DNA of 64,000 nt from Salinibacterium xinjiangense (lineage in GTDB: Bacteria; Actinomycetota; Actinomycetes; Actinomycetales; Microbacteriaceae): positions 124,001 to 188,000 of the forward strand of contig NZ_BMLC01000004.1 of assembly GCF_014645015.1 (NCBI RefSeq), read 5' to 3'. This document shows, in pieces, positions 22,662-30,854 of this stretch; within the stretch, counting starts at the first letter, position 1, and each line of letters begins with the position of its first letter. The notes beneath the pieces are model-generated. The model made no database searches, was not told where the DNA came from, and saw nothing but the letters and a program-made list of their open reading frames with translations. The position numbers and the translations under genes were made by a program.

Positions 22662-24116
22662 ATGGTTGACGTGGATGCGGTGGTCGTCGGGTCGGGACCG
22701 AACGGGCTTGCGGCGGCGGTCACTCTCGCGCGCGCCGGGCTTTCGGTGCAGGTGGTCGAGCGTGCAGACACGATCGGCGGCGGGGCGAGGACGGCCGAGC
22801 TGACGCTGCCCGGCTTCCACCACGACGTCTGCTCGGCGGTGCATCCGATGGCCCTCGCGAGCGGTTTCTTCCGTCGGTTCGAGCTGGAGCGGCGCGTAGA
22901 GCTCGTCGTTCCTGAACTCTCTTACGGACATCCGCTCGACGGGGGGCGCGCCGGACTAGCGTGGCATGACCTCGAGCGCACGGTCGACGGGCTCGGTCGT
23001 GACGGCGACGCTTATCGGCGGATCATGGGGCCTCTTGTCGACAGGGCCGACCGGATGGCGCAATTCACCCTTTCTCCCCTGCTGCAGCTTCCGCGGCATC
23101 CACTGACTGCCATTCTCTTCGGCCTGGCCGCTCTCGAACAGGGCTCACCGGCGTGGAACGCGCGCTTCTCTGAGGAGGCGGCGCCGGCGATGCTGACCGG
23201 TGTCGCGGCACACGCCATCCAGCGCATGCCGAGTCTCGGCACCGCGGCCGTCGCGCTCTCTCTTGGAGCGCATGCCCACGCTCGCGGCTGGCCGGTTCCG
23301 ATCGGCGGCAGCCAGAGCATCGTGGATGCCATGGTCGACGACCTGCGGGCCCACGGGGCAACCATCACCACCGGGGTCGACGTCGCGTCGCTGAGCGAGC
23401 TTCCGCGCTCGACGGCCGTGCTGCTCGATGTGAACGCGCATGCCATGCTCGACATCGCCGGGGATCGTCTTCCCGATGCATACCGCCGGCGGGTGCGGCG
23501 GTTCCGGTTCGGCAACGCGGCCGCGAAAGTCGACTTCGCGCTCTCGGGGCCCGTGCCGTGGACCAACACCGCGCTCGCCGGGGCGGGAACCCTTCACGTG
23601 GGCGGAACCCGAAGCGAGATCGCCCACACCGAGGCTGAGGTGGCCGCGGGCAGGCACAGCGCGAACCCGTACGTGCTCGTATCGCAGCCGTCAGCCGCCG
23701 ACCCCGGCCGTGCTCCCGCTGGCCAGCACGTCCTGTGGGCGTACACGCATGTTCCGAGTGGATCGGATGTCGACCAGACCGAAGCCGTCACCGCCCAGAT
23801 CGAGCGGTTCGCGCCGGGGTTCCGTGACCTCATCCTCGCCACCGCGAGCAGGACCGCTGTGCAGATGCAGCAGGACAACCCGAACTACGTCGGTGGGGAT
23901 ATTGCGGCCGGTGCGGCCACCTTCGCCCAGCTCATCGCCCGACCGGTGCTCTCGACAGATCCGTGGCGGACTCCCGCAGAGGGGCTCTACCTCTGCTCGT
24001 CATCCACGCCCCCGGGCCCGGGGGTGCACGGACTTCCCGGCTATTACGCTGCTCGCAGCGCCCTGAGGCACGAATTCGGTATCGACAGCGGGCCATCGCT
24101 GGCCCTCGGAAGGTAA
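22662..24116 (+). CDS. Phytoene-desaturase-like NAD(P)/FAD oxidoreductase
   Basis: A 484-residue flavoprotein with DAVVVGSGPNGLAAAVTLARAG at the N-terminus (FAD Rossmann), VVERADTIGGGARTAEL, FHHDVCSAVHPMA and a C-terminal FAD-closing stretch PPGPGVHGLPGYYAA. It is a relative of the enzyme at 13403-14941, with the same unknown substrate question. The conserved PYVLVSQPS and WAYTHVPSG strands are typical of this non-carotenoid subgroup. Likely controlled by the divergent YtrA-type regulator. Confidence 0.8.
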   Translation: MVDVDAVVVGSGPNGLAAAVTLARAGLSVQVVERADTIGGGARTAELTLPGFHHDVCSAVHPMALASGFFRRFELERRVELVVPELSYGHPLDGGRAGLAWHDLERTVDGLGRDGDAYRRIMGPLVDRADRMAQFTLSPLLQLPRHPLTAILFGLAALEQGSPAWNARFSEEAAPAMLTGVAAHAIQRMPSLGTAAVALSLGAHAHARGWPVPIGGSQSIVDAMVDDLRAHGATITTGVDVASLSELPRSTAVLLDVNAHAMLDIAGDRLPDAYRRRVRRFRFGNAAAKVDFALSGPVPWTNTALAGAGTLHVGGTRSEIAHTEAEVAAGRHSANPYVLVSQPSAADPGRAPAGQHVLWAYTHVPSGSDVDQTEAVTAQIERFAPGFRDLILATASRTAVQMQQDNPNYVGGDIAAGAATFAQLIARPVLSTDPWRTPAEGLYLCSSSTPPGPGVHGLPGYYAARSALRHEFGIDSGPSLALGR

Positions 24117-24406: not shown

Positions 24407-25117
24407 TTATCTCTCGTCTTCTGCGGCGAGGAGTGCGACCTCAGAGACGAGGATGATGTGATCCCTCATGGCTTTGGCTGCGGCCTCTGCGTTGCCCTGT
24501 CGGATGGCGTCGGCGATGGCCCGGTGCGATTTCAGGGACTGCTCTGGTCGGCCGGGCTGCCCCAGCGACTCGATCCGGGTCTCGAGAATCATTTCGTGGA
24601 TCAGCGCCATCATCCTTGCCAGCACAGACGACTGCGCCGCGGCGGTGACTGCCGCGTGGAACCGTTCATCTCCGGCAACGCCGCGCCCTCCATCGGCGAT
24701 CTCGGCTGCCATCGCGTCGAGTGCGTCGTCAATGTTCGCCAGGTCCTCCTCGGTGCGCCGGGCGGCTGCGAGTTCAGCGAGTTTCACCTCCAGTGTGCTG
24801 CGGGCCTCGATGATGTCGGGCAGTCGACTGCGGTGCTCGCGGAAGCCCTGGATCACCGATGCGAGCGTCGGGCGCGCGATGATGGTCGCGCCGGTACCGT
24901 GCTGCACGTCGATGACACCGAGGACCTCGAGCGCGACGAGCGCCTGGGAGAGGGTGGCCCGGGACACCCCGAGCTTCTCAGCCAGCTCCCGTTCCGGTGG
25001 AAGCCTGTCTCCCGGAACGAGTTCGTCGGCTTCCATGAACTGCACGAGTTGCTCGACGAGTTGCTCGTAGAGGCGCGGTCGGGCGATGCGTTGGAGTCGG
25101 GCAGGTGCAACGGACAT
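24407..25117 (-). CDS. GntR-family regulator with FCD domain (MatR-like)
   Basis: A 236-residue FadR-type repressor. The N-terminal winged helix includes LPPERELAEKLGVSRATLSQALVALEVLG; the C-terminal helical FCD domain carries the metal-binding pattern EIADGG...DERFHAAV...SHRAIADAIR with conserved His residues. I choose ATG 25117, which has GAGGAAG 6 nt upstream; ATG 25147 lacks a ribosome site. It is divergent from the MatC-type transporter, and rhizobial MatR, which controls malonate genes, has the same architecture. Malonate or its CoA ester as effector is inferred. Confidence 0.85.
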   Translation of the reverse strand: MSVAPARLQRIARPRLYEQLVEQLVQFMEADELVPGDRLPPERELAEKLGVSRATLSQALVALEVLGVIDVQHGTGATIIARPTLASVIQGFREHRSRLPDIIEARSTLEVKLAELAAARRTEEDLANIDDALDAMAAEIADGGRGVAGDERFHAAVTAAAQSSVLARMMALIHEMILETRIESLGQPGRPEQSLKSHRAIADAIRQGNAEAAAKAMRDHIILVSEVALLAAEDER

Positions 25118-25161
25118 CGTGGACTTCCTCACTGGACTTGTCACCATTATGCCGCGTCGAA

Positions 25162-25191
25162 TTGACAGGGTGGCTGATTCTCCCAGATACT
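25162..25191 (+). promoter_or_regulatory. Sigma-70-like promoter for the matC operon
   Basis: TTGACA at 25162-25167 and GATACT at 25186-25191 are 18 bp apart, 70 bp upstream of the matC start. The -35 is perfect and the -10 matches 4 of 6. Confidence 0.5.
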
Positions 25192-25242
25192 AGGCCACTG
25201 AACCAATTGCTGATCGTCGCACTTGCGCCTAAATGCGAGTCA

Positions 25243-25260
25243 CAACTCAAAGGAGAGTTG
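25243..25260 (+). promoter_or_regulatory. Hairpin enclosing the matC ribosome-binding site
   Basis: CAACTC (25243-25248) and GAGTTG (25255-25260) flank AAAGGA, so the Shine-Dalgarno AAAGGAG sits in the loop and first stem base, directly before ATG 25262. It could tune translation or be an operator half-site pair. Confidence 0.45.
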
Positions 25261-25261
25261 C

Positions 25262-26626
25262 ATGTCACCGGAAGTCATCTCGATCATTGCCTTGGCGGCA
25301 ATGTTTATTCTTGCCACGATCTTCCCGATCAACATGGGTGCGCTTGCCTTCGTCGGCGCATTTCTCGTCGGGACGCTTGCGGTCGGGATGACGACGACCG
25401 AGATTCTCGACGGATTTCCCGGGGACCTGTTCCTCACGATCGTCGGTGTCACCTACCTCTTCGCCATCGCGCAGAACAATGGCACGATCGACGTCCTGGT
25501 CAGTGGCGCCGTTCGACTGGTGCGAGGTCATATCGCCCTGATCCCGTGGGTGATGTTCTTTGTCACAGCCGCGATAACCGCCCTGGGTGCGCTTTCGCCC
25601 GCTGCGGTCGCAATCATCGCGCCCATCGCTCTGGGCTTCGCCGCTCGCTACAAGATCAACCCCATGATGATGGGGATGATGGTTATCCACGGGGCGCAGG
25701 CCGGCGGATTCTCACCGATCGCGGTCTACGGCGTGACAGTCAACAGCATCATGGCGAGCACGCCGCTCGAACAGAGTCCGCTAGCGGTATTCCTGGCGAG
25801 CCTGATCTTCAACCTCGGCATCGCCACCGTGCTGTTCGTGGTCTTCGGCGGCCGCAAACTGATCGGGCTCAAGGCTCGCGACTTCGAGTCAGTCGATGGA
25901 TCACCATCGATGGCTGGCGGTGCCGATGTGGCGTACAAGGGATTCGGTTCCGGCATGTATGGGCCCCGCGACCCTGCAGGGGGCGCGATTGTCGCTACGG
26001 AGCTCAAGTCGCTGACCGAGACACGGCGACTCGTCTTGCCCCAACTCCTCACCATCATCGGACTGCTTGTGCTTGCGGTCGTCGCTCTCGGCTTCCAGAT
26101 CAATGTCGGATTCGTGTCCATCGTCATCGCTGTCCTGCTCGCTATCGCGTCACCGAAGGGCCAGAAGGGTGCGGTCAACCAGATCAGCTGGTCGACGGTT
26201 CTCCTTGTCTGCGGCATGCTGACATTCGTCGGAGTGCTGCAGGCGGCAGGTACGATCCAGTTCGTCTCGGAGGCAGTGGCCTCCATCGGCTTCCCCCTTC
26301 TCGTCGCCCTGCTGATCTGCTACATCGGCGCCGTAGTCTCTGCATTCGCCTCGTCGACCGCGATTATCGCGGTGCTGATCCCACTGGCAGTGCCGTTCCT
26401 CCTCGACGGGAACATCGGTGCGATCGGCGTGATCTGTGCGCTCGCCGTCTCGGCCACCATCGTCGATGTCTCGCCGTTCTCAACCAACGGCGCTCTCGTC
26501 CTGGCCAACTCGCCAGAGGTAGGCCGGGACGTGTTCTACAAGAAAATCCTCAGTTACAGCGGAGTGGTGGTGGTCTTCGGGCCGCTCCTCGCCTGGTTGG
26601 TCTTCGTCGTACCCGGATGGCTGTGA
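25262..26626 (+). CDS. MatC-type dicarboxylate/malonate carrier
   Basis: A 454-residue integral membrane carrier with about 12 hydrophobic segments. The first 140 residues match the MatC N-terminal domain (MSPEVISIIALAAMF, LDGFPGDLFLTIVGVTYLFAI, NNGTIDVLVSGAV, GALSPAAVAIIAPIAL), found in the malonate carrier of Rhizobium and in SLC13/DASS-like permeases. The second half repeats the fold (SASTAIIAVLIP-like ASSTAIIAVLIPLAV, DVSPFSTNGALVLAN). The start is ATG 25262 with AGGAG 8 nt upstream. The stop overlaps the CoA-transferase start (TGATG). Substrate malonate is inferred from family and neighbours; other C3-C4 diacids are possible. Confidence 0.85.
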   Translation: MSPEVISIIALAAMFILATIFPINMGALAFVGAFLVGTLAVGMTTTEILDGFPGDLFLTIVGVTYLFAIAQNNGTIDVLVSGAVRLVRGHIALIPWVMFFVTAAITALGALSPAAVAIIAPIALGFAARYKINPMMMGMMVIHGAQAGGFSPIAVYGVTVNSIMASTPLEQSPLAVFLASLIFNLGIATVLFVVFGGRKLIGLKARDFESVDGSPSMAGGADVAYKGFGSGMYGPRDPAGGAIVATELKSLTETRRLVLPQLLTIIGLLVLAVVALGFQINVGFVSIVIAVLLAIASPKGQKGAVNQISWSTVLLVCGMLTFVGVLQAAGTIQFVSEAVASIGFPLLVALLICYIGAVVSAFASSTAIIAVLIPLAVPFLLDGNIGAIGVICALAVSATIVDVSPFSTNGALVLANSPEVGRDVFYKKILSYSGVVVVFGPLLAWLVFVVPGWL

Positions 26627-27810
26627 TGCGCGGGCCGCTCGTCGGCGTCGTGGTCGTAGATCTCAGCCGAGCACTTGCGGGGCCGCACGCCGCCATGATG
26701 CTCGGGGACCTCGGCGCTCGAGTCGTGAAGGTCGAGAGCCCAGCCGGAGGTGACGACGCTAGGTCATGGGGGCCACCGTTCGTCGGCCCCGAGGACGACG
26801 AACAGTCGACCTACTTCCTCTCCTGCAACAGGAACAAGGAGTCGATCGCACTCGACCTTAAGTCGGAAGACGGAAAAGACGTGCTGCGCGCACTGCTCCG
26901 GAAAGCGGATGTCGTCATCGAGAACTTCCGCGCCGGCGTGATGACACGCCTGGGGTTCTCGACCTCCGAGCTGCACGAGATTAATCCGGGCCTGGTCATA
27001 CTGTCGATCACGGGCTTCGGGCACGATGGCCCCGAAGCGCTTCGAGCGGGGTACGACCAGATCGTGCAGGGCGAAGCCGGGTTGATGTCGGTCACCGGGT
27101 CCGGCCCCGACGACGTGCAGCGCGTCGGGGTTCCGGTCGCCGATTTGCTGTCGGGAATCTACGGCGCTTTCGGGGTCGTCTCTGCGCTGTTCGAACGGGC
27201 CGGCTCGGGCCGCGGGCAGGTTGTCCGCACCTCGCTCCTGTCGTCGATCGTGGGAATCCACGCGTTCCAGGGCACCATGGCGACGGTCGCTCACGCGGTG
27301 CCGCTGGCCCAGGGCAATCACCACCCCTCGATAGCTCCCTATGGTCTCTTTCGCTGCCGTGACGGGTCTGTTCAGATCAGTGTCGGCAACAACAGCCTGT
27401 GGCAGCGACTCTGCGAGAATTTCGGCATCGATCCTGCCACCCCGGGTCTCGAGACGAACGCGATGCGGGTGACGAACCGGGCTCGCACGATCGCGACCGT
27501 CGAAGAGGCGTTCAGCGAGTTCGACGCTGAGGAGCTGCTACTGATGCTCGATGCCGCCGGCATTCCTGCCGGCAAGGTGAGAACGCTCGACGAGGTCTAC
27601 AAGTGGCCGCAGCTTCTTTCCCAGGGGCTCAAGATCAGCGTCGACCACAGCACTCTCGGCCCCATCGACCTCCCGGGCCCGCCCATCCGCTTCTTCGATG
27701 CCGCCGACGGCGCCGAGGTCGAGACAACCCGCACCGAACACACCGCGCCACCCACGCTGGGCGAGCACGCCGCGACGATCAAGGCCTGGCTCGACGAGTC
27801 AGCCGAGTGA
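26626..27810 (+). CDS. CaiB/BaiF-family CoA-transferase (type III)
   Basis: A 394-residue type III CoA-transferase: VVVVDLSRALAGPHAAMMLGDLGA, VVKVESPAGGD, NRNKESIALDLK, VVIENFRAG and SITGFGHDGP are class signatures. VGVPVADLLSGIYG carries the Asp (about 173) that forms the aspartyl-CoA anhydride intermediate. It would move CoA onto the imported acid. The start at ATG 26626 overlaps the carrier stop by one base; ATG 26617 (MAVMRG) is an in-frame alternative. Operon partner: the carboxyltransferase 9 bp downstream. Acceptor identity is not encoded in visible motifs. Confidence 0.88.
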   Translation: MRGPLVGVVVVDLSRALAGPHAAMMLGDLGARVVKVESPAGGDDARSWGPPFVGPEDDEQSTYFLSCNRNKESIALDLKSEDGKDVLRALLRKADVVIENFRAGVMTRLGFSTSELHEINPGLVILSITGFGHDGPEALRAGYDQIVQGEAGLMSVTGSGPDDVQRVGVPVADLLSGIYGAFGVVSALFERAGSGRGQVVRTSLLSSIVGIHAFQGTMATVAHAVPLAQGNHHPSIAPYGLFRCRDGSVQISVGNNSLWQRLCENFGIDPATPGLETNAMRVTNRARTIATVEEAFSEFDAEELLLMLDAAGIPAGKVRTLDEVYKWPQLLSQGLKISVDHSTLGPIDLPGPPIRFFDAADGAEVETTRTEHTAPPTLGEHAATIKAWLDESAE

Positions 27811-27819
27811 GCAGGAACA

Positions 27820-29319
27820 ATGCCTGACCGCAGGAAAAGCCCGAGCGCCTCCGAGCTCATATCGCTGCTGACCGATCCAGGCACCTTCGTTTCCTGGGAT
27901 TCGACGCCGATCGATGTCCACCCGACACCCGCCTATGCCATCGCGCTCGCCGCTGCGCGGGAGAAGGCCGGCACCGATGAGGCCGTGATAACCGGCGAGG
28001 GCCGCATCCGGGGCCGCCGAGTGGCGATCATCGCCTGCGAGTTCAGGTTCCTTGCCGGATCCATCGGTGTCGCGTCAGCGCAGCGACTCGTCGAAGCGAT
28101 CGAACGCGCGACCCTAGAGGGCCTGCCCCTCCTCGCGGGACCGGCCTCCGGGGGAACCCGCATGCAGGAGGGGACCCTTGCGTTCCTGTCGATGGTCAAG
28201 ATCTCCGCGGCGATCTCGAAGCACAAGGCTGCGCGACTCCCGTACCTTGTCTACCTGCGGCATCCGACGACGGGCGGCGTGATGGCATCCTGGGCCTCTC
28301 TCGGACACGTGACCGTCGCCGAGCCCGGAGCGCTCGTCGGATTCCTCGGCCCGCGCGTGTACGAGGCCATCTATGGCGAGAAGTTTCCGGACGGAGTCCA
28401 GACATCCGAGAATCTCTTCCGGATGGGAATCATCGACGGCATCGTCAGCGCTGAGAATCTCCCCGATGTCGTCGAGCGCGTCCTTTCCGTGCTGGAACCT
28501 CCTCGGTCCAGGCCCGCTGTGCCACGCCCCGATGTCTGGGCCGGCAAGCGAAGCACGACCTGGGAGTCCATCGAGTTGTCCCGTCGCCCCGACAGGCCGG
28601 GCATCCGTGCACTGCTGCACCATGGCGCGCGATCTGTGCTGCCCCTCAACGGCACGGGTCAGGGTGAAAAGGAGCCGGGTCTCGTGCTCGCCCTGGCGCA
28701 ATTCGGTAACACCTCCTGCGTCGTCATGGGACAGGATCGCAACTCGCAGCGAAACAGGGCCCCTTTGGGCCCTGCGGCACTGCGCGAGGCTCGACGTGGG
28801 ATGCGACTCTCGCACGAACTCGGACTTCCGCTCGTCACCATCATCGACACTCCGGGCGTCGCGATGTCGCGAGAGGCCGAAGAGGGTGGCCTGTCCGGCG
28901 AGATCGCCCGCTGCCTCGCCGAGCTGGTGATGCTACCGAGTCTCACCGTCTCGCTCATCCTCGGGGAAGGCACCGGGGGAGGGGCGCTCGCGCTTCTGCC
29001 AGCGGACCGGACGCTTGCCTCCGAACACGCCTGGCTTTCCCCACTCCCACCGGAAGGCGCGAGCGCGATCATGCATCGCGACACGCTCCACGCCTCCGAA
29101 ATGGCCGAGGAGCAGGGCGTCGGGGCCGCCGCCCTGCTTGCCAACAAGATCATCGACTGGGTCATCCCCGAGGAGACGGACGCCTCACAGGAGGTCTCGG
29201 CGTTCTGCGCCCGCGTAAGCCAATCGCTCGAATACTTCCTCTCCGAACTCGCAGGCCAGAACCCCCGGGCGCGCCTCGATGCGCGGCTCGAACGCTACCG
29301 TTCGCTCGGCCTCCGCTGA
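27820..29319 (+). CDS. Fused AccD-AccA-type carboxyltransferase
   Basis: A 499-residue acyl-CoA carboxyltransferase made of two crotonase-like halves. The N-half resembles AccD (ASGGTRMQEG near 112, PTTGGVMASWASLG, AEPGALVGFLGPRV) but lacks the AccD zinc finger. The C-half resembles AccA (TIIDTPGVAMSREAEEGG near 345, GEGTGGGALAL). The AccD-AccA fusion occurs in actinobacteria, yet no biotin carboxylase or biotin-carrier gene is near. With a malonate-type carrier and a CoA-transferase upstream, it may transfer the carboxyl group off malonyl-CoA, in the manner of MdcD/MdcE (inference). It is the last gene of the operon. Confidence 0.85.
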   Translation: MPDRRKSPSASELISLLTDPGTFVSWDSTPIDVHPTPAYAIALAAAREKAGTDEAVITGEGRIRGRRVAIIACEFRFLAGSIGVASAQRLVEAIERATLEGLPLLAGPASGGTRMQEGTLAFLSMVKISAAISKHKAARLPYLVYLRHPTTGGVMASWASLGHVTVAEPGALVGFLGPRVYEAIYGEKFPDGVQTSENLFRMGIIDGIVSAENLPDVVERVLSVLEPPRSRPAVPRPDVWAGKRSTTWESIELSRRPDRPGIRALLHHGARSVLPLNGTGQGEKEPGLVLALAQFGNTSCVVMGQDRNSQRNRAPLGPAALREARRGMRLSHELGLPLVTIIDTPGVAMSREAEEGGLSGEIARCLAELVMLPSLTVSLILGEGTGGGALALLPADRTLASEHAWLSPLPPEGASAIMHRDTLHASEMAEEQGVGAAALLANKIIDWVIPEETDASQEVSAFCARVSQSLEYFLSELAGQNPRARLDARLERYRSLGLR

Positions 29320-29443: not shown

Positions 29444-30670
29444 TCAGTTGGCTGGGGAGAATTTACGCTCCAGCCAATTGGCGAGCGGCACCACATCGCT
29501 TATCAGGATCCCGAAGTGATCGCCAAGACTGGCCGACGCCGCTGGCGCGACCTTGCGGTATTCGATCCATTCGACGGTGACGGCGGGGTTTCTGCGCTTG
29601 AGCTGCTTCCACAGTCTTCTGGTCGCAGCCGCTGACACTCGACGGTCGTTGAGAGCCTGGGATATCCGGATGGGCACCTGGATGTCCAAATCTGGGTGCA
29701 TCCGGGTCAGTGCGGCTCTCAGCCTCGGTTTGCGGGAGAGAACGCGGAAGTATTTGCGCCCAGGTAATGCACCCCAGGAATCGGGCCCACTCAATTCGAC
29801 TCTGGTTTGCACGTCGATCGTGTCTCTGAAGAGCTGGAGCCCGAGCGGTGTGAAGACCTTTTGTTCCAGCTCAGGGGCCAGGCCAGGGTCGCTGGCGAGG
29901 GCACCGGCGATGGCCAGCGGTAAGAACGCCAGGTCGGGCGCGGCCGGCAACAGGGACAGCATGAGAAGGCGCTCCTGCGCAGACGCTGGCGCGATCGCGG
30001 CGACAGCGAGAAGTGTGAGCTCAGCGGTCCAGGTTGGGGCGAGGTGCGCGGCGAATAACGCAGCCTGCCCGCCTTGCGAGTGACCGACGATCACGAAACG
30101 TCGAGAGATTGTTTCCTGTCCGGTCGCAGTGTCGCGATTATGAAGGGCACGAGCTGCTCGGACGATGTCCAGCACTCCACGCGCTTCCGACGTCCCGAAG
30201 AGGTAAGGATGCTGGCCGCGAGTGCCGAGCCCCTCGTAATCGGTCATAACGACGGCCCAGCCGCGGTTGAGGAATTCGTTCAACAGCCCATGAGGGGCCG
30301 CGTTGATCTTGCGGTGAACGGTCATGGGCGGGTCGGTCGGGTCACCGATGTCAGCCAGCTCTTCCGAGTCCAGCGAGGGAGCACCGCGATCTGCGACACC
30401 GACGGTTCCGTGCGACCAACTCACGACTGGCCAGCCACCCGTCGGCGGGTTTCCCTGGGGGATTGCAACGATTCCCGAGACAGCTATCGGCGCTCCATCA
30501 GACACGCGCATGGACTGATAGATCACGAGTTCGCACGCTGCGGCGGATTCCAACGCGGCAGGTCCCGACATCGTGCGCACACGGATCACGTCACCATGTG
30601 CGCCCATCAGGTCGGTGGCGACGACGCGATAGAACGGGTCCACAGGCTCCGTGTCTGGCAGGAGACTCAT
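29444..30670 (-). CDS. Secretory-lipase-like alpha/beta hydrolase
   Basis: A 408-residue alpha/beta hydrolase of the LIP (secretory lipase) type. VIVGHSQGGQAALFA is the nucleophile elbow (Ser about 199); VVSWSHGTVGVAD is the oxyanion-hole strand and WAVVMTDYEGLGTRG a family signature; catalytic His is likely in SLGDHFGIL near the C-terminus. No signal peptide is visible at the chosen ATG 30670; a TTG at 30736 would add 22 residues without making one. Ester substrate unknown; stands alone. Confidence 0.8.
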   Translation of the reverse strand: MSLLPDTEPVDPFYRVVATDLMGAHGDVIRVRTMSGPAALESAAACELVIYQSMRVSDGAPIAVSGIVAIPQGNPPTGGWPVVSWSHGTVGVADRGAPSLDSEELADIGDPTDPPMTVHRKINAAPHGLLNEFLNRGWAVVMTDYEGLGTRGQHPYLFGTSEARGVLDIVRAARALHNRDTATGQETISRRFVIVGHSQGGQAALFAAHLAPTWTAELTLLAVAAIAPASAQERLLMLSLLPAAPDLAFLPLAIAGALASDPGLAPELEQKVFTPLGLQLFRDTIDVQTRVELSGPDSWGALPGRKYFRVLSRKPRLRAALTRMHPDLDIQVPIRISQALNDRRVSAAATRRLWKQLKRRNPAVTVEWIEYRKVAPAASASLGDHFGILISDVVPLANWLERKFSPAN

Positions 30671-30854
30671 CGGGGTCGAGAGCAGGCGTCGATAGCAAGA
30701 CGGCTGCGTGAAGGCGAACAAGAACTCATCTGGCAACTATGGTGGGCGACCACCACGAGCGTCAATACGGCCGATAGCGGACTTAGCGGGTCCTTGCACG
30801 CGGCCAAGACCGGGTGCTAAACGAGTTTGTTCAGCTGGGACCGACGCCAACGAG

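What the first reader, a model, noticed from the sequence alone, without database searches (positions are those of the whole stretch)
24407..29319. Possible undescribed malonate-type operon: MatC carrier + CaiB/BaiF CoA-transferase + fused carboxyltransferase
The sequence shows a divergent FCD-GntR regulator and a tight operon of a MatC-family carrier, a type III CoA-transferase with its catalytic Asp, and an AccD-AccA fusion without zinc finger or a biotin-carrier neighbour. Known malonate systems use MatB synthetase plus MatA decarboxylase, or the Mdc complex. Here CoA-transfer (malonate + acyl-CoA to malonyl-CoA) followed by carboxyl removal or transfer by the fused enzyme would be a third layout. 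The chemistry is inference; other diacids (methylmalonate, oxalate-like) are possible.
Basis: partly seen in the sequence, partly recalled or inferred. Interest (0 to 1): 0.75.

Follow-up and report, generated by a model that had tools for sequence, protein, structure and literature searches.

The report
Possible biotin-free malonate-breakdown operon
An actinobacterium carries a small gene set that probably imports malonate, tags it with coenzyme A and strips off CO2, using an enzyme that looks like part of a fatty-acid-building enzyme turned to breakdown; in relatives the same transferase sits beside a uracil-degradation gene, which fits malonate as the substrate, but no step has been tested in the laboratory.

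Summary
Observation confirmed: a divergent FCD-GntR regulator, then matC, a type III CoA-transferase (CoAT) and a fused AccD-AccA carboxyltransferase (CT) in one tight operon. It is conserved: of 248 genomes of the order, 54 have the CoAT, 53 the CT, 43 both; CT lies beside CoAT in 41 of 54 fetched CoAT loci. New evidence favours malonate: of 19 barbiturase genes in those 248 genomes, 16 lie within 12 kb of this CoAT; barbiturase starts barbiturate > ureidomalonate > malonate. In the CT clade, 141 of 141 loci show no biotin carboxylase and no zinc finger, and the AccA-side motif is changed; the six fused CTs beside biotin carboxylase differ in all three. Best reading: malonate > malonyl-CoA by CoA transfer, then biotin-free decarboxylation to acetyl-CoA, a CoA-based counterpart of Mdc. 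Against: 11 CoAT genomes have no fused CT, Mdc catalytic residues are not conserved, and a biotin carrier acting in trans is not excluded. By gene order the clade probably includes the orphan mycobacterial AccD3. No chemistry is shown.

The parts
24407..25147 (-). FCD-type GntR regulator, divergent from the operon
   Evidence: PF00392 58 bits and PF07729 99 bits; a relative is present in 31 of 80 CT loci
25148..25261 (.). intergenic control region: promoter-like TTGACA-N18-GATACT at 25162-25191, AAAGGAG ribosome-binding site at 25249-25255, and an inverted repeat CAACTC-N6-GAGTTG at 25243-25260 around it
   Evidence: the repeat, read, corresponds to palindromes seen in 2 of 38 regions; no conserved operator was found
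25262..26626 (+). MatC-family dicarboxylate (malonate) carrier
   Evidence: MatC_N PF07158 211 bits over residues 1-149, CitMHS 90 bits
26626..27810 (+). type III (CaiB/BaiF) CoA-transferase, catalytic Asp173
   Evidence: PF02515 378 bits; nearest solved relatives 4ed9 (284 bits), SUGCT 9br7/9br6 (270/269) and 10uh (265); Asp conserved in 104 of 104
27820..29319 (+). fused AccD-AccA carboxyltransferase without zinc finger; proposed malonyl-CoA decarboxylase
   Evidence: PF01039 171 bits, PF03255 156 bits; accD 185 bits, AccA 155 bits, both below curated cut-offs; model pLDDT 89; clade and motifs

Best explanation
The operon is an inducible malonate-assimilation unit. MatC imports malonate (inferred from family). 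The CoA-transferase moves CoA from acetyl-CoA or succinyl-CoA to malonate, through Asp173 as in other class III enzymes, giving malonyl-CoA (inferred). The fused CT binds malonyl-CoA at its AccD half and removes CO2 without biotin, giving acetyl-CoA (inferred). Net: malonate > acetate + CO2 if acetyl-CoA is the donor, or malonate + succinyl-CoA > acetyl-CoA + succinate + CO2; free CoA does the job that the special acyl-carrier protein does in Mdc. The GntR-FCD protein is probably the effector-responsive regulator (inferred). Shown here: the genes, their conserved linkage, the linkage of the CoAT to barbiturase, and the sequence changes in the CT.
For: CoAT-CT pairing: of 248 genomes 54 have the CoAT, 53 the CT, 43 both (Fisher p 3e-28, not corrected for kinship); adjacent in 41 of 54 CoAT loci. 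Malonate: MatC beside it; barbiturase in 19 of 248 genomes, 18 of which have the CoAT and 16 of which have it within 12 kb; L218 holds GntR-MatC-CoAT-CT-carbamate kinase-barbiturase in a row. The barbiturase of L245 scores 691 bits to the solved chain 5hwe, deposited as barbiturase, against 325 to the best cyanuric acid hydrolase; the published Bar signature segments (PMC3758960) were all found in 9 of 12 copies, two of three segments in L244 and L248, one in L243, which is cut by the locus end. The oxidative pathway yields malonate and urea (PMC3758960 introduction). Not a normal ACC subunit: 0 of 141 window-clade loci have a biotin carboxylase gene in the held flanks, against 6 of 21 other fused CTs; zinc finger 0 of 141 against 6 of 6 in those six; Gly386 in 142 of 142 rows, where those six and the three AccA chains printed have Ser. 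Precedent: MdcD-MdcE, a CT-fold pair, decarboxylates malonyl-CoA without biotin (PMC5534430, sections read). Own genome: no Mdc gamma subunit at E 1e-30 (in which 4 of 296 genomes matched).
Against: The MdcE residues shown to matter (Gln100, Ser142) align with V347 and G386 here, so the Mdc mechanism is not simply inherited. By sequence the CT is nearer to AccDA than to MdcDE. Eleven genomes with the CoAT, nine of them with barbiturase, have no fused CT, so the CT is not needed wherever the CoAT works. Barbiturase goes with the CT less tightly than with the CoAT: 10 of 19 genomes. Ten genomes have the CT and no such CoAT, and Rhodococcus-type loci lack the CoAT beside it. A middle group of 15 fused CTs also lacks zinc finger and biotin carboxylase neighbours yet keeps the AccA-type GGSGG. 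One solved ACC alpha chain (9m70_B) lacks the AYPG motif, so that motif alone proves little. The genome has one biotin carboxylase-carrier protein that could serve in trans and two further class III CoA-transferases. The window's own genome gave no barbiturase match.
Confidence: 0.55

Rival explanations
1. Same operon and substrate, but the CT is biotin-dependent: it moves the carboxyl of malonyl-CoA to the shared biotin carrier (584-aa protein at G000 C2), which then recovers ATP, releases CO2 or carboxylates another acyl-CoA.
For: The CT is AccDA-type by sequence and has the fold of biotin-dependent carboxyltransferases; the genome has one biotin carboxylase-carrier protein that could be shared; GG pairs are kept in both halves in most rows.
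Against: No biotin carboxylase found beside the CT in 141 of 141 loci against 6 of 21 outside the clade; AccA-side Ser replaced in 142 of 142. The own carrier protein lies about 6 kb from the only other CT found in the genome, a PccB-type. Mycobacterial AccD3, probably of this clade, bound none of the partners tested in pull-downs (PMC4347857, passages).
Confidence: 0.2
2. The CoAT acts on another acid: ureidomalonate in the barbiturase clusters, or methylmalonate, glutarate, oxalate or a related diacid where MatC is present; the CT then acts on that acyl-CoA.
For: The CoAT's best curated model is succinate-glutarate CoA-transferase (320 bits, cut-off 750), then CoA:oxalate CoA-transferase (244, cut-off 522), so none is met. 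In 9 genomes CoAT and barbiturase occur without a fused CT. Other partners next to the pair include FAA hydrolase, flavin monooxygenase, carboxylesterase and M20 amidohydrolase.
Against: MatC and barbiturase both point to malonate and are joined with the pair in L218; a CT suits a carboxyl beta to the thioester, which ureidomalonyl-CoA lacks (inference).
Confidence: 0.18
3. The CT runs forward as a second acetyl-CoA carboxylase subunit and the cluster makes or exports malonate.
For: Homology to AccDA; MatC direction cannot be read from sequence.
Against: No carboxylase partner found in the clade's loci, catabolic partners in relatives, a divergent GntR-FCD regulator.
Confidence: 0.05

Closest known systems
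Mdc, biotin-independent malonate decarboxylase (MdcA, C, D, E; Pseudomonas, Acinetobacter, Klebsiella)
   Same: malonate is activated as a thioester by transfer, then decarboxylated by a CT-fold D-E pair without biotin; the thioester product carries the activation to the next malonate (PMC5534430)
   Different: no acyl-carrier protein or its loading genes in the operon; transferase is of the CaiB/BaiF family and not MdcA; D and E halves fused and nearer to AccDA; MdcE Gln100 and Ser142 not conserved
MatABC of rhizobia (recalled)
   Same: MatC-type carrier and a GntR regulator; malonyl-CoA as intermediate
   Different: CoA-transferase in place of the MatB ligase, CT in place of the MatA decarboxylase
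AccD-AccA carboxyltransferase of bacterial acetyl-CoA carboxylase, including the six fused AccDA proteins found beside biotin carboxylase
   Same: domain order, fold and AccD-side motifs
   Different: no zinc finger, no biotin partner genes found, Ser replaced by Gly386, AYPG/AEERG region changed
Mycobacterial AccD3 (MSMEG_5642 and its M. tuberculosis homologue, PMC5311964 and PMC4347857 passages; its locus number Rv0904c and gene order recalled)
   Same: probable member of the same clade by neighbours: enoyl-CoA hydratase, beta-lactamase-fold proteins and PrrA-like regulator
   Different: no CoAT or MatC beside it; function unknown
Succinate-hydroxymethylglutarate CoA-transferase (SUGCT)
   Same: a dicarboxylate CoA-transferase among the closest solved relatives (270 and 269 bits)
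   Different: 4ed9 (284 bits) is nearer and 10uh, named formyl-CoA transferase, almost as near (265); below the curated cut-off of the bacterial model; substrate here untested

Membership tests
Mdc malonate decarboxylase | MdcD and MdcE homologues at family level (TIGR03133, TIGR03134) | tested here: not met
   47 and 32 bits against cut-offs of 278 and 237; no TIGR03134 match in the own genome at E 1e-30, 4 of 296 genomes matched
Mdc malonate decarboxylase | MdcE Gln100 and Ser142 | tested here: not met
   aligned positions are Val347 and Gly386; placed by eye from the alignments
Mdc malonate decarboxylase | acyl-carrier protein MdcC and loading genes in the operon | tested here: not met
   the operon holds only matC, CoAT and CT between 25262 and 29319; not searched elsewhere in the genome
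MatABC malonate system | MatC carrier | tested here: met
   MatC_N 211 bits, cut-off 23
MatABC malonate system | MatB malonyl-CoA ligase beside matC | tested here: not met
   none in the operon. Elsewhere inconclusive: 15 matches to NF005702 in the own genome, none over its cut-off of 558 (best 318), but none of the 14 control genomes passed it either (that this model is malonyl-CoA synthase is recalled)
MatABC malonate system | MatA malonyl-CoA decarboxylase (PF05292) | tested here: inconclusive
   none in the operon; no match in the own genome or in any of 65 genomes, but no control rang either
Acetyl-CoA carboxylase AccDA | Carboxyl_trans and ACCA domains | tested here: met
   171 and 156 bits
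Acetyl-CoA carboxylase AccDA | zinc finger in AccD | tested here: not met
   0 of 141 clade members, 6 of 6 fused AccDA beside biotin carboxylase
Acetyl-CoA carboxylase AccDA | biotin carboxylase and carrier partner genes nearby | tested here: not met
   0 of 141 loci with biotin carboxylase in the held flanks; one unverified carrier-like motif in L122
Class III CoA-transferase | PF02515 family and catalytic Asp | tested here: met
   378 bits; D in 104 of 104 relatives
Class III CoA-transferase | CoA transfer activity on malonate | not testable with these tools
   needs assay

The most novel reading that the evidence does not exclude
A large actinobacterial clade of fused AccD-AccA proteins, including the orphan AccD3 of mycobacteria, has left acetyl-CoA carboxylase and become a biotin-free, carrier-protein-free malonyl-CoA decarboxylase. 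With a CaiB-type malonate CoA-transferase it forms a third malonate route and serves as the last step of oxidative uracil breakdown through barbiturate.
Probability: 0.38. Interest if true: 0.75.

Novelty: new variant of a known kind. Interest (0 to 1): 0.6.

Why it matters
It would add a third genetic layout for malonate use, with free CoA in place of the Mdc carrier protein and without ATP-driven MatB. It would supply candidate genes for what happens to malonate after barbiturase in oxidative pyrimidine breakdown. It would also give a testable function for AccD3, whose role was stated in 2017 to await further study (PMC5311964, passages) and which bound no tested partner (PMC4347857, passages). 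Annotation by similarity would tend to call these proteins acetyl-CoA carboxylase subunits.

Tried and rejected
Rejected: chance neighbours. Rejected: cyanuric acid hydrolase for the neighbouring AtzD-family enzyme, although one NCBIfam model of that name (NF052395) passes its cut-off at 471 bits, because the solved barbiturase scores twice as high as any cyanuric acid hydrolase and the specificity residues are of the Bar type. The idea that loss of AYPG proves loss of biotin use was weakened by 9m70_B. The first gene choices around the loci picked antisense frames and were redone with a codon score; some wrong frames remain there, so counts rest on BLAST hits.

Limits: the 80 named loci (best 80 kept of 192) and the 54 unnamed loci share genomes, as equal contig lengths show. 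Of the 57 CoAT places, 54 were fetched; the other three are the window itself and G062 and G008, held already. Loci 4 to 33, short pieces of some of the same genes, were left out of the motif and tree counts. The window clade was cut at 41% identity to the window; the tree agrees with that cut. Many loci end at contig ends, so absence of a neighbour is weaker there. The tree used the quick method on 134 of 163 rows: L076 and L197 were left out as partial and 27 as near-copies; the tool warns of long branches.
Full report
What is there. The window carries a divergent FCD-GntR regulator (24407-25147, -) and three genes on the + strand: matC (25262-26626), a type III CoA-transferase (26626-27810, its ATG overlapping the matC stop) and a fused AccD-AccA carboxyltransferase (27820-29319), nine bases further on. 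A promoter-like site lies at 25162-25191. The flanking FAD-dependent oxidoreductase (22662-24116) and lipase-like protein (29444-30736, -) did not recur in the loci compared at the scores used, except one distant match to the first (34%, L151).

Conservation. A scan of the GTDB species genomes gave 192 stretches that encode a relative of the CT, of which the best 80 were kept. In these 80, the CoAT lies within 600 bases on the same strand in 45, MatC is present in 32, GntR in 31 and all four in 26. Four loci (L044, L045, L048, L056) have GntR-MatC-CT and no CoAT beside the CT. Agreia and Brevibacterium keep CoAT-CT with other neighbours; Rhodococcus-type loci have the CT without the CoAT. Starting from the CoAT instead, 54 of 248 genomes of the order have a close relative (E at most 1e-120); of 54 loci fetched, 41 have the CT adjacent and 42 have it somewhere in the locus. 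By genome, CoAT 54, CT 53 (E at most 1e-90), both 43; Fisher p 3e-28 without correction for kinship. Eleven CoAT genomes lack any fused CT; their best matches are 24-27% identical and of the PccB kind by my reading, or nothing. Ten genomes have the CT and no such CoAT.

Substrate. In 12 of the 54 fetched CoAT loci a ring-opening amidohydrolase (PF09663) and in 13 a carbamate kinase-like gene lie nearby. The amidohydrolase of L245 scores 691 bits against the solved chain 5hwe, deposited as barbiturase, and 325 against the best cyanuric acid hydrolase. The published Bar signature (Asn195, His321, Lys325, Val345, Ser/Ala346; PMC3758960, section 12) was found complete in 9 of 12 copies; in L244 and L248 my pattern missed the Asn segment, and L243 is cut by the end of the locus. 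A search of the same 248 genomes with this barbiturase gave 19 matches in 19 genomes; 18 of these genomes have the CoAT, and by the coordinates, 16 of the 19 genes lie within 12 kb of it (exceptions: G062 far apart, G299 on another contig, G501 without CoAT). Ten of the 19 have the CT. Barbiturase opens barbiturate and ureidomalonase gives malonate and urea (PMC3758960 introduction). L218 has GntR, MatC, CoAT, CT, carbamate kinase and barbiturase in a row. This is independent of the MatC argument and favours malonate. The window's own genome gave no barbiturase match, so there malonate would come from outside through MatC or from another route.

Is the CT a normal carboxylase subunit? Curated models put it nearest to AccD (185 bits, cut-off 317) and AccA (155 bits, cut-off 300), well above the malonate decarboxylase subunits (47 and 32 bits). 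The tree of 134 fused CTs separates the window clade (113 rows, SH-aLRT 100) from fused AccDA proteins that lie beside biotin carboxylase (6 rows, 100) and from a middle group of 15 (98) (quick method, and the tool warns of long branches). In the window clade no biotin carboxylase gene was found in 141 of 141 loci, against 6 of 21 outside it; one clade locus (L122) has an unverified carrier-like motif 6.6 kb away. All six of those have a Cys4 zinc finger; none of 141 window-clade and none of 15 middle-group proteins has. On the AccA side, the Ser of GEGGSGG is Gly in 142 of 142 window-clade rows (window included) and Ser in 6 of 6 and 15 of 15 of the others; the Tyr/Phe of AYPG is Ala, Ser, Glu, Asp or Val. 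The AccD-side PTTGG motif is kept in nearly all rows. That the AccD side holds the acyl-CoA and the AccA side the biotin is recalled from work on carboxyltransferases; on that basis the thioester site is kept and the biotin side changed. Two cautions: a solved ACC alpha chain (9m70_B) also lacks AYPG, and the middle group lacks the zinc finger and biotin neighbours yet keeps GGSGG.

Precedent and difference. MdcD-MdcE has the CT fold and decarboxylates malonyl-CoA without biotin, with K0.5 100 uM and kcat 2.3 per second; MdcE Q100E and S142A lose about tenfold (PMC5534430, four sections read). These residues correspond here to Val347 and Gly386 by my reading. So the system may work like Mdc but is not a member of it.

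The CoA-transferase. It passes no curated specificity model: best are succinate-glutarate (320 bits, cut-off 750) and oxalate (244, cut-off 522) CoA-transferases. The nearest solved chains are 4ed9, SUGCT and 10uh. So sequence alone says class III, not which acid. The own genome has two more class III members, 42-43% identical to this one.

Own genome. It has two Carboxyl_trans proteins: this one and a PccB-type in the same 16-kb stretch as the biotin carboxylase-carrier protein (584 aa); the other biotin carboxylase domain lies in a 1,176-aa frame, probably pyruvate carboxylase. No Mdc gamma subunit. No match to NF005702 (malonyl-CoA synthase, recalled) over its cut-off, but no control passed it either. 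Malonyl-CoA decarboxylase was not found, but that search rang nowhere.

AccD3. In L146, L148 and L149 the CT is divergent from an enoyl-CoA hydratase of 243-244 aa; L149 adds a metallo-beta-lactamase-fold and a beta-lactamase-family gene, and L148 has the response regulator beside it. From memory this is the order around accD3 (Rv0904c); no named AccD3 sequence was compared. Published work reports that AccD3 bound no partner in pull-downs (PMC4347857, passages), that its deletion in M. smegmatis left fatty and mycolic acids unchanged, and that this species has a second accD3-like gene, MSMEG_2169 (PMC5311964, passages). The name accD3 is also used for a different, mycolic-acid gene in other genera (PMC9592669, passages).

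Structure. A model of the CT from 22 rows reached pLDDT 89 and pTM 0.89. The 50 PDB matches listed are 12S transcarboxylase, PccB-type and similar carboxyltransferases, TM 0.63-0.75 by query length. This confirms the fold and does not decide on biotin.

Literature. Ten searches of the held open-access library listed no paper that I recognised as describing a CaiB-type malonate transferase with a fused CT; I saw listings with abstract starts, and passages or sections of six papers (PMC5534430, PMC3758960, PMC4347857, PMC5311964, PMC9592669, PMC6572756). Subscription papers are mostly not held, so this is weak evidence of novelty. A malonate CoA-transferase activity has an old enzyme entry (EC 2.8.3.3, recalled).

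Verdict. A real, conserved operon, most likely for malonate, with a probable biotin-free decarboxylase of a new type. Linkage and sequence changes are shown; transport direction, CoA transfer, decarboxylation and regulation are inferred.

Noticed in passing
L245:2750-14157, L240, L248, L227, L228: CoAT and CT cluster with barbiturase and a carbamate kinase-like gene; in L245 also hydantoinase A and B and a cytidine-deaminase-like gene, in L248 hydantoinase B. Candidates for ureidomalonate processing.
   Followed up: partly
L213:2629-9208, L223, L039, L049: CoAT-CT next to FAA hydrolase, flavin monooxygenase (L213, L223) and DUF3500 (PF12006), suggesting another degradation route that feeds the pair.
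   Followed up: no
L035:2449-9479 (also L036-L038): Agreia: Opp-like ABC importer with ATPase, carboxylesterase, CoAT and CT in a row; may release malonate from malonyl esters.
   Followed up: no
L104:3769-9491; L221:7673-9310: Leucobacter and another genome: M20 amidohydrolase before CoAT-CT, with a sodium:solute symporter in L104.
   Followed up: no
L128-L132, L134, L135, L137, L138, L140, L154, L155, L158-L160: A middle group of 15 fused CTs at about 33-40% identity without zinc finger or biotin carboxylase neighbour, motif mostly GADP, which keeps GEGGSGG; function unclear.
   Followed up: partly
L219, L222, L224, L232, L243, L244 and genomes G085, G396, G534: CoAT and barbiturase without any fused CT in the genome; what consumes the acyl-CoA there is unknown.
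   Followed up: partly
L076:7986-9479; L197 (G374); G472:C17:42019-42690: CT copies that appear split or cut into pieces, so probably decaying or misassembled; described only.
   Followed up: no
window 25243-25260: Perfect inverted repeat CAACTC-N6-GAGTTG around the matC ribosome-binding site (read); operator or hairpin unknown.
   Followed up: no
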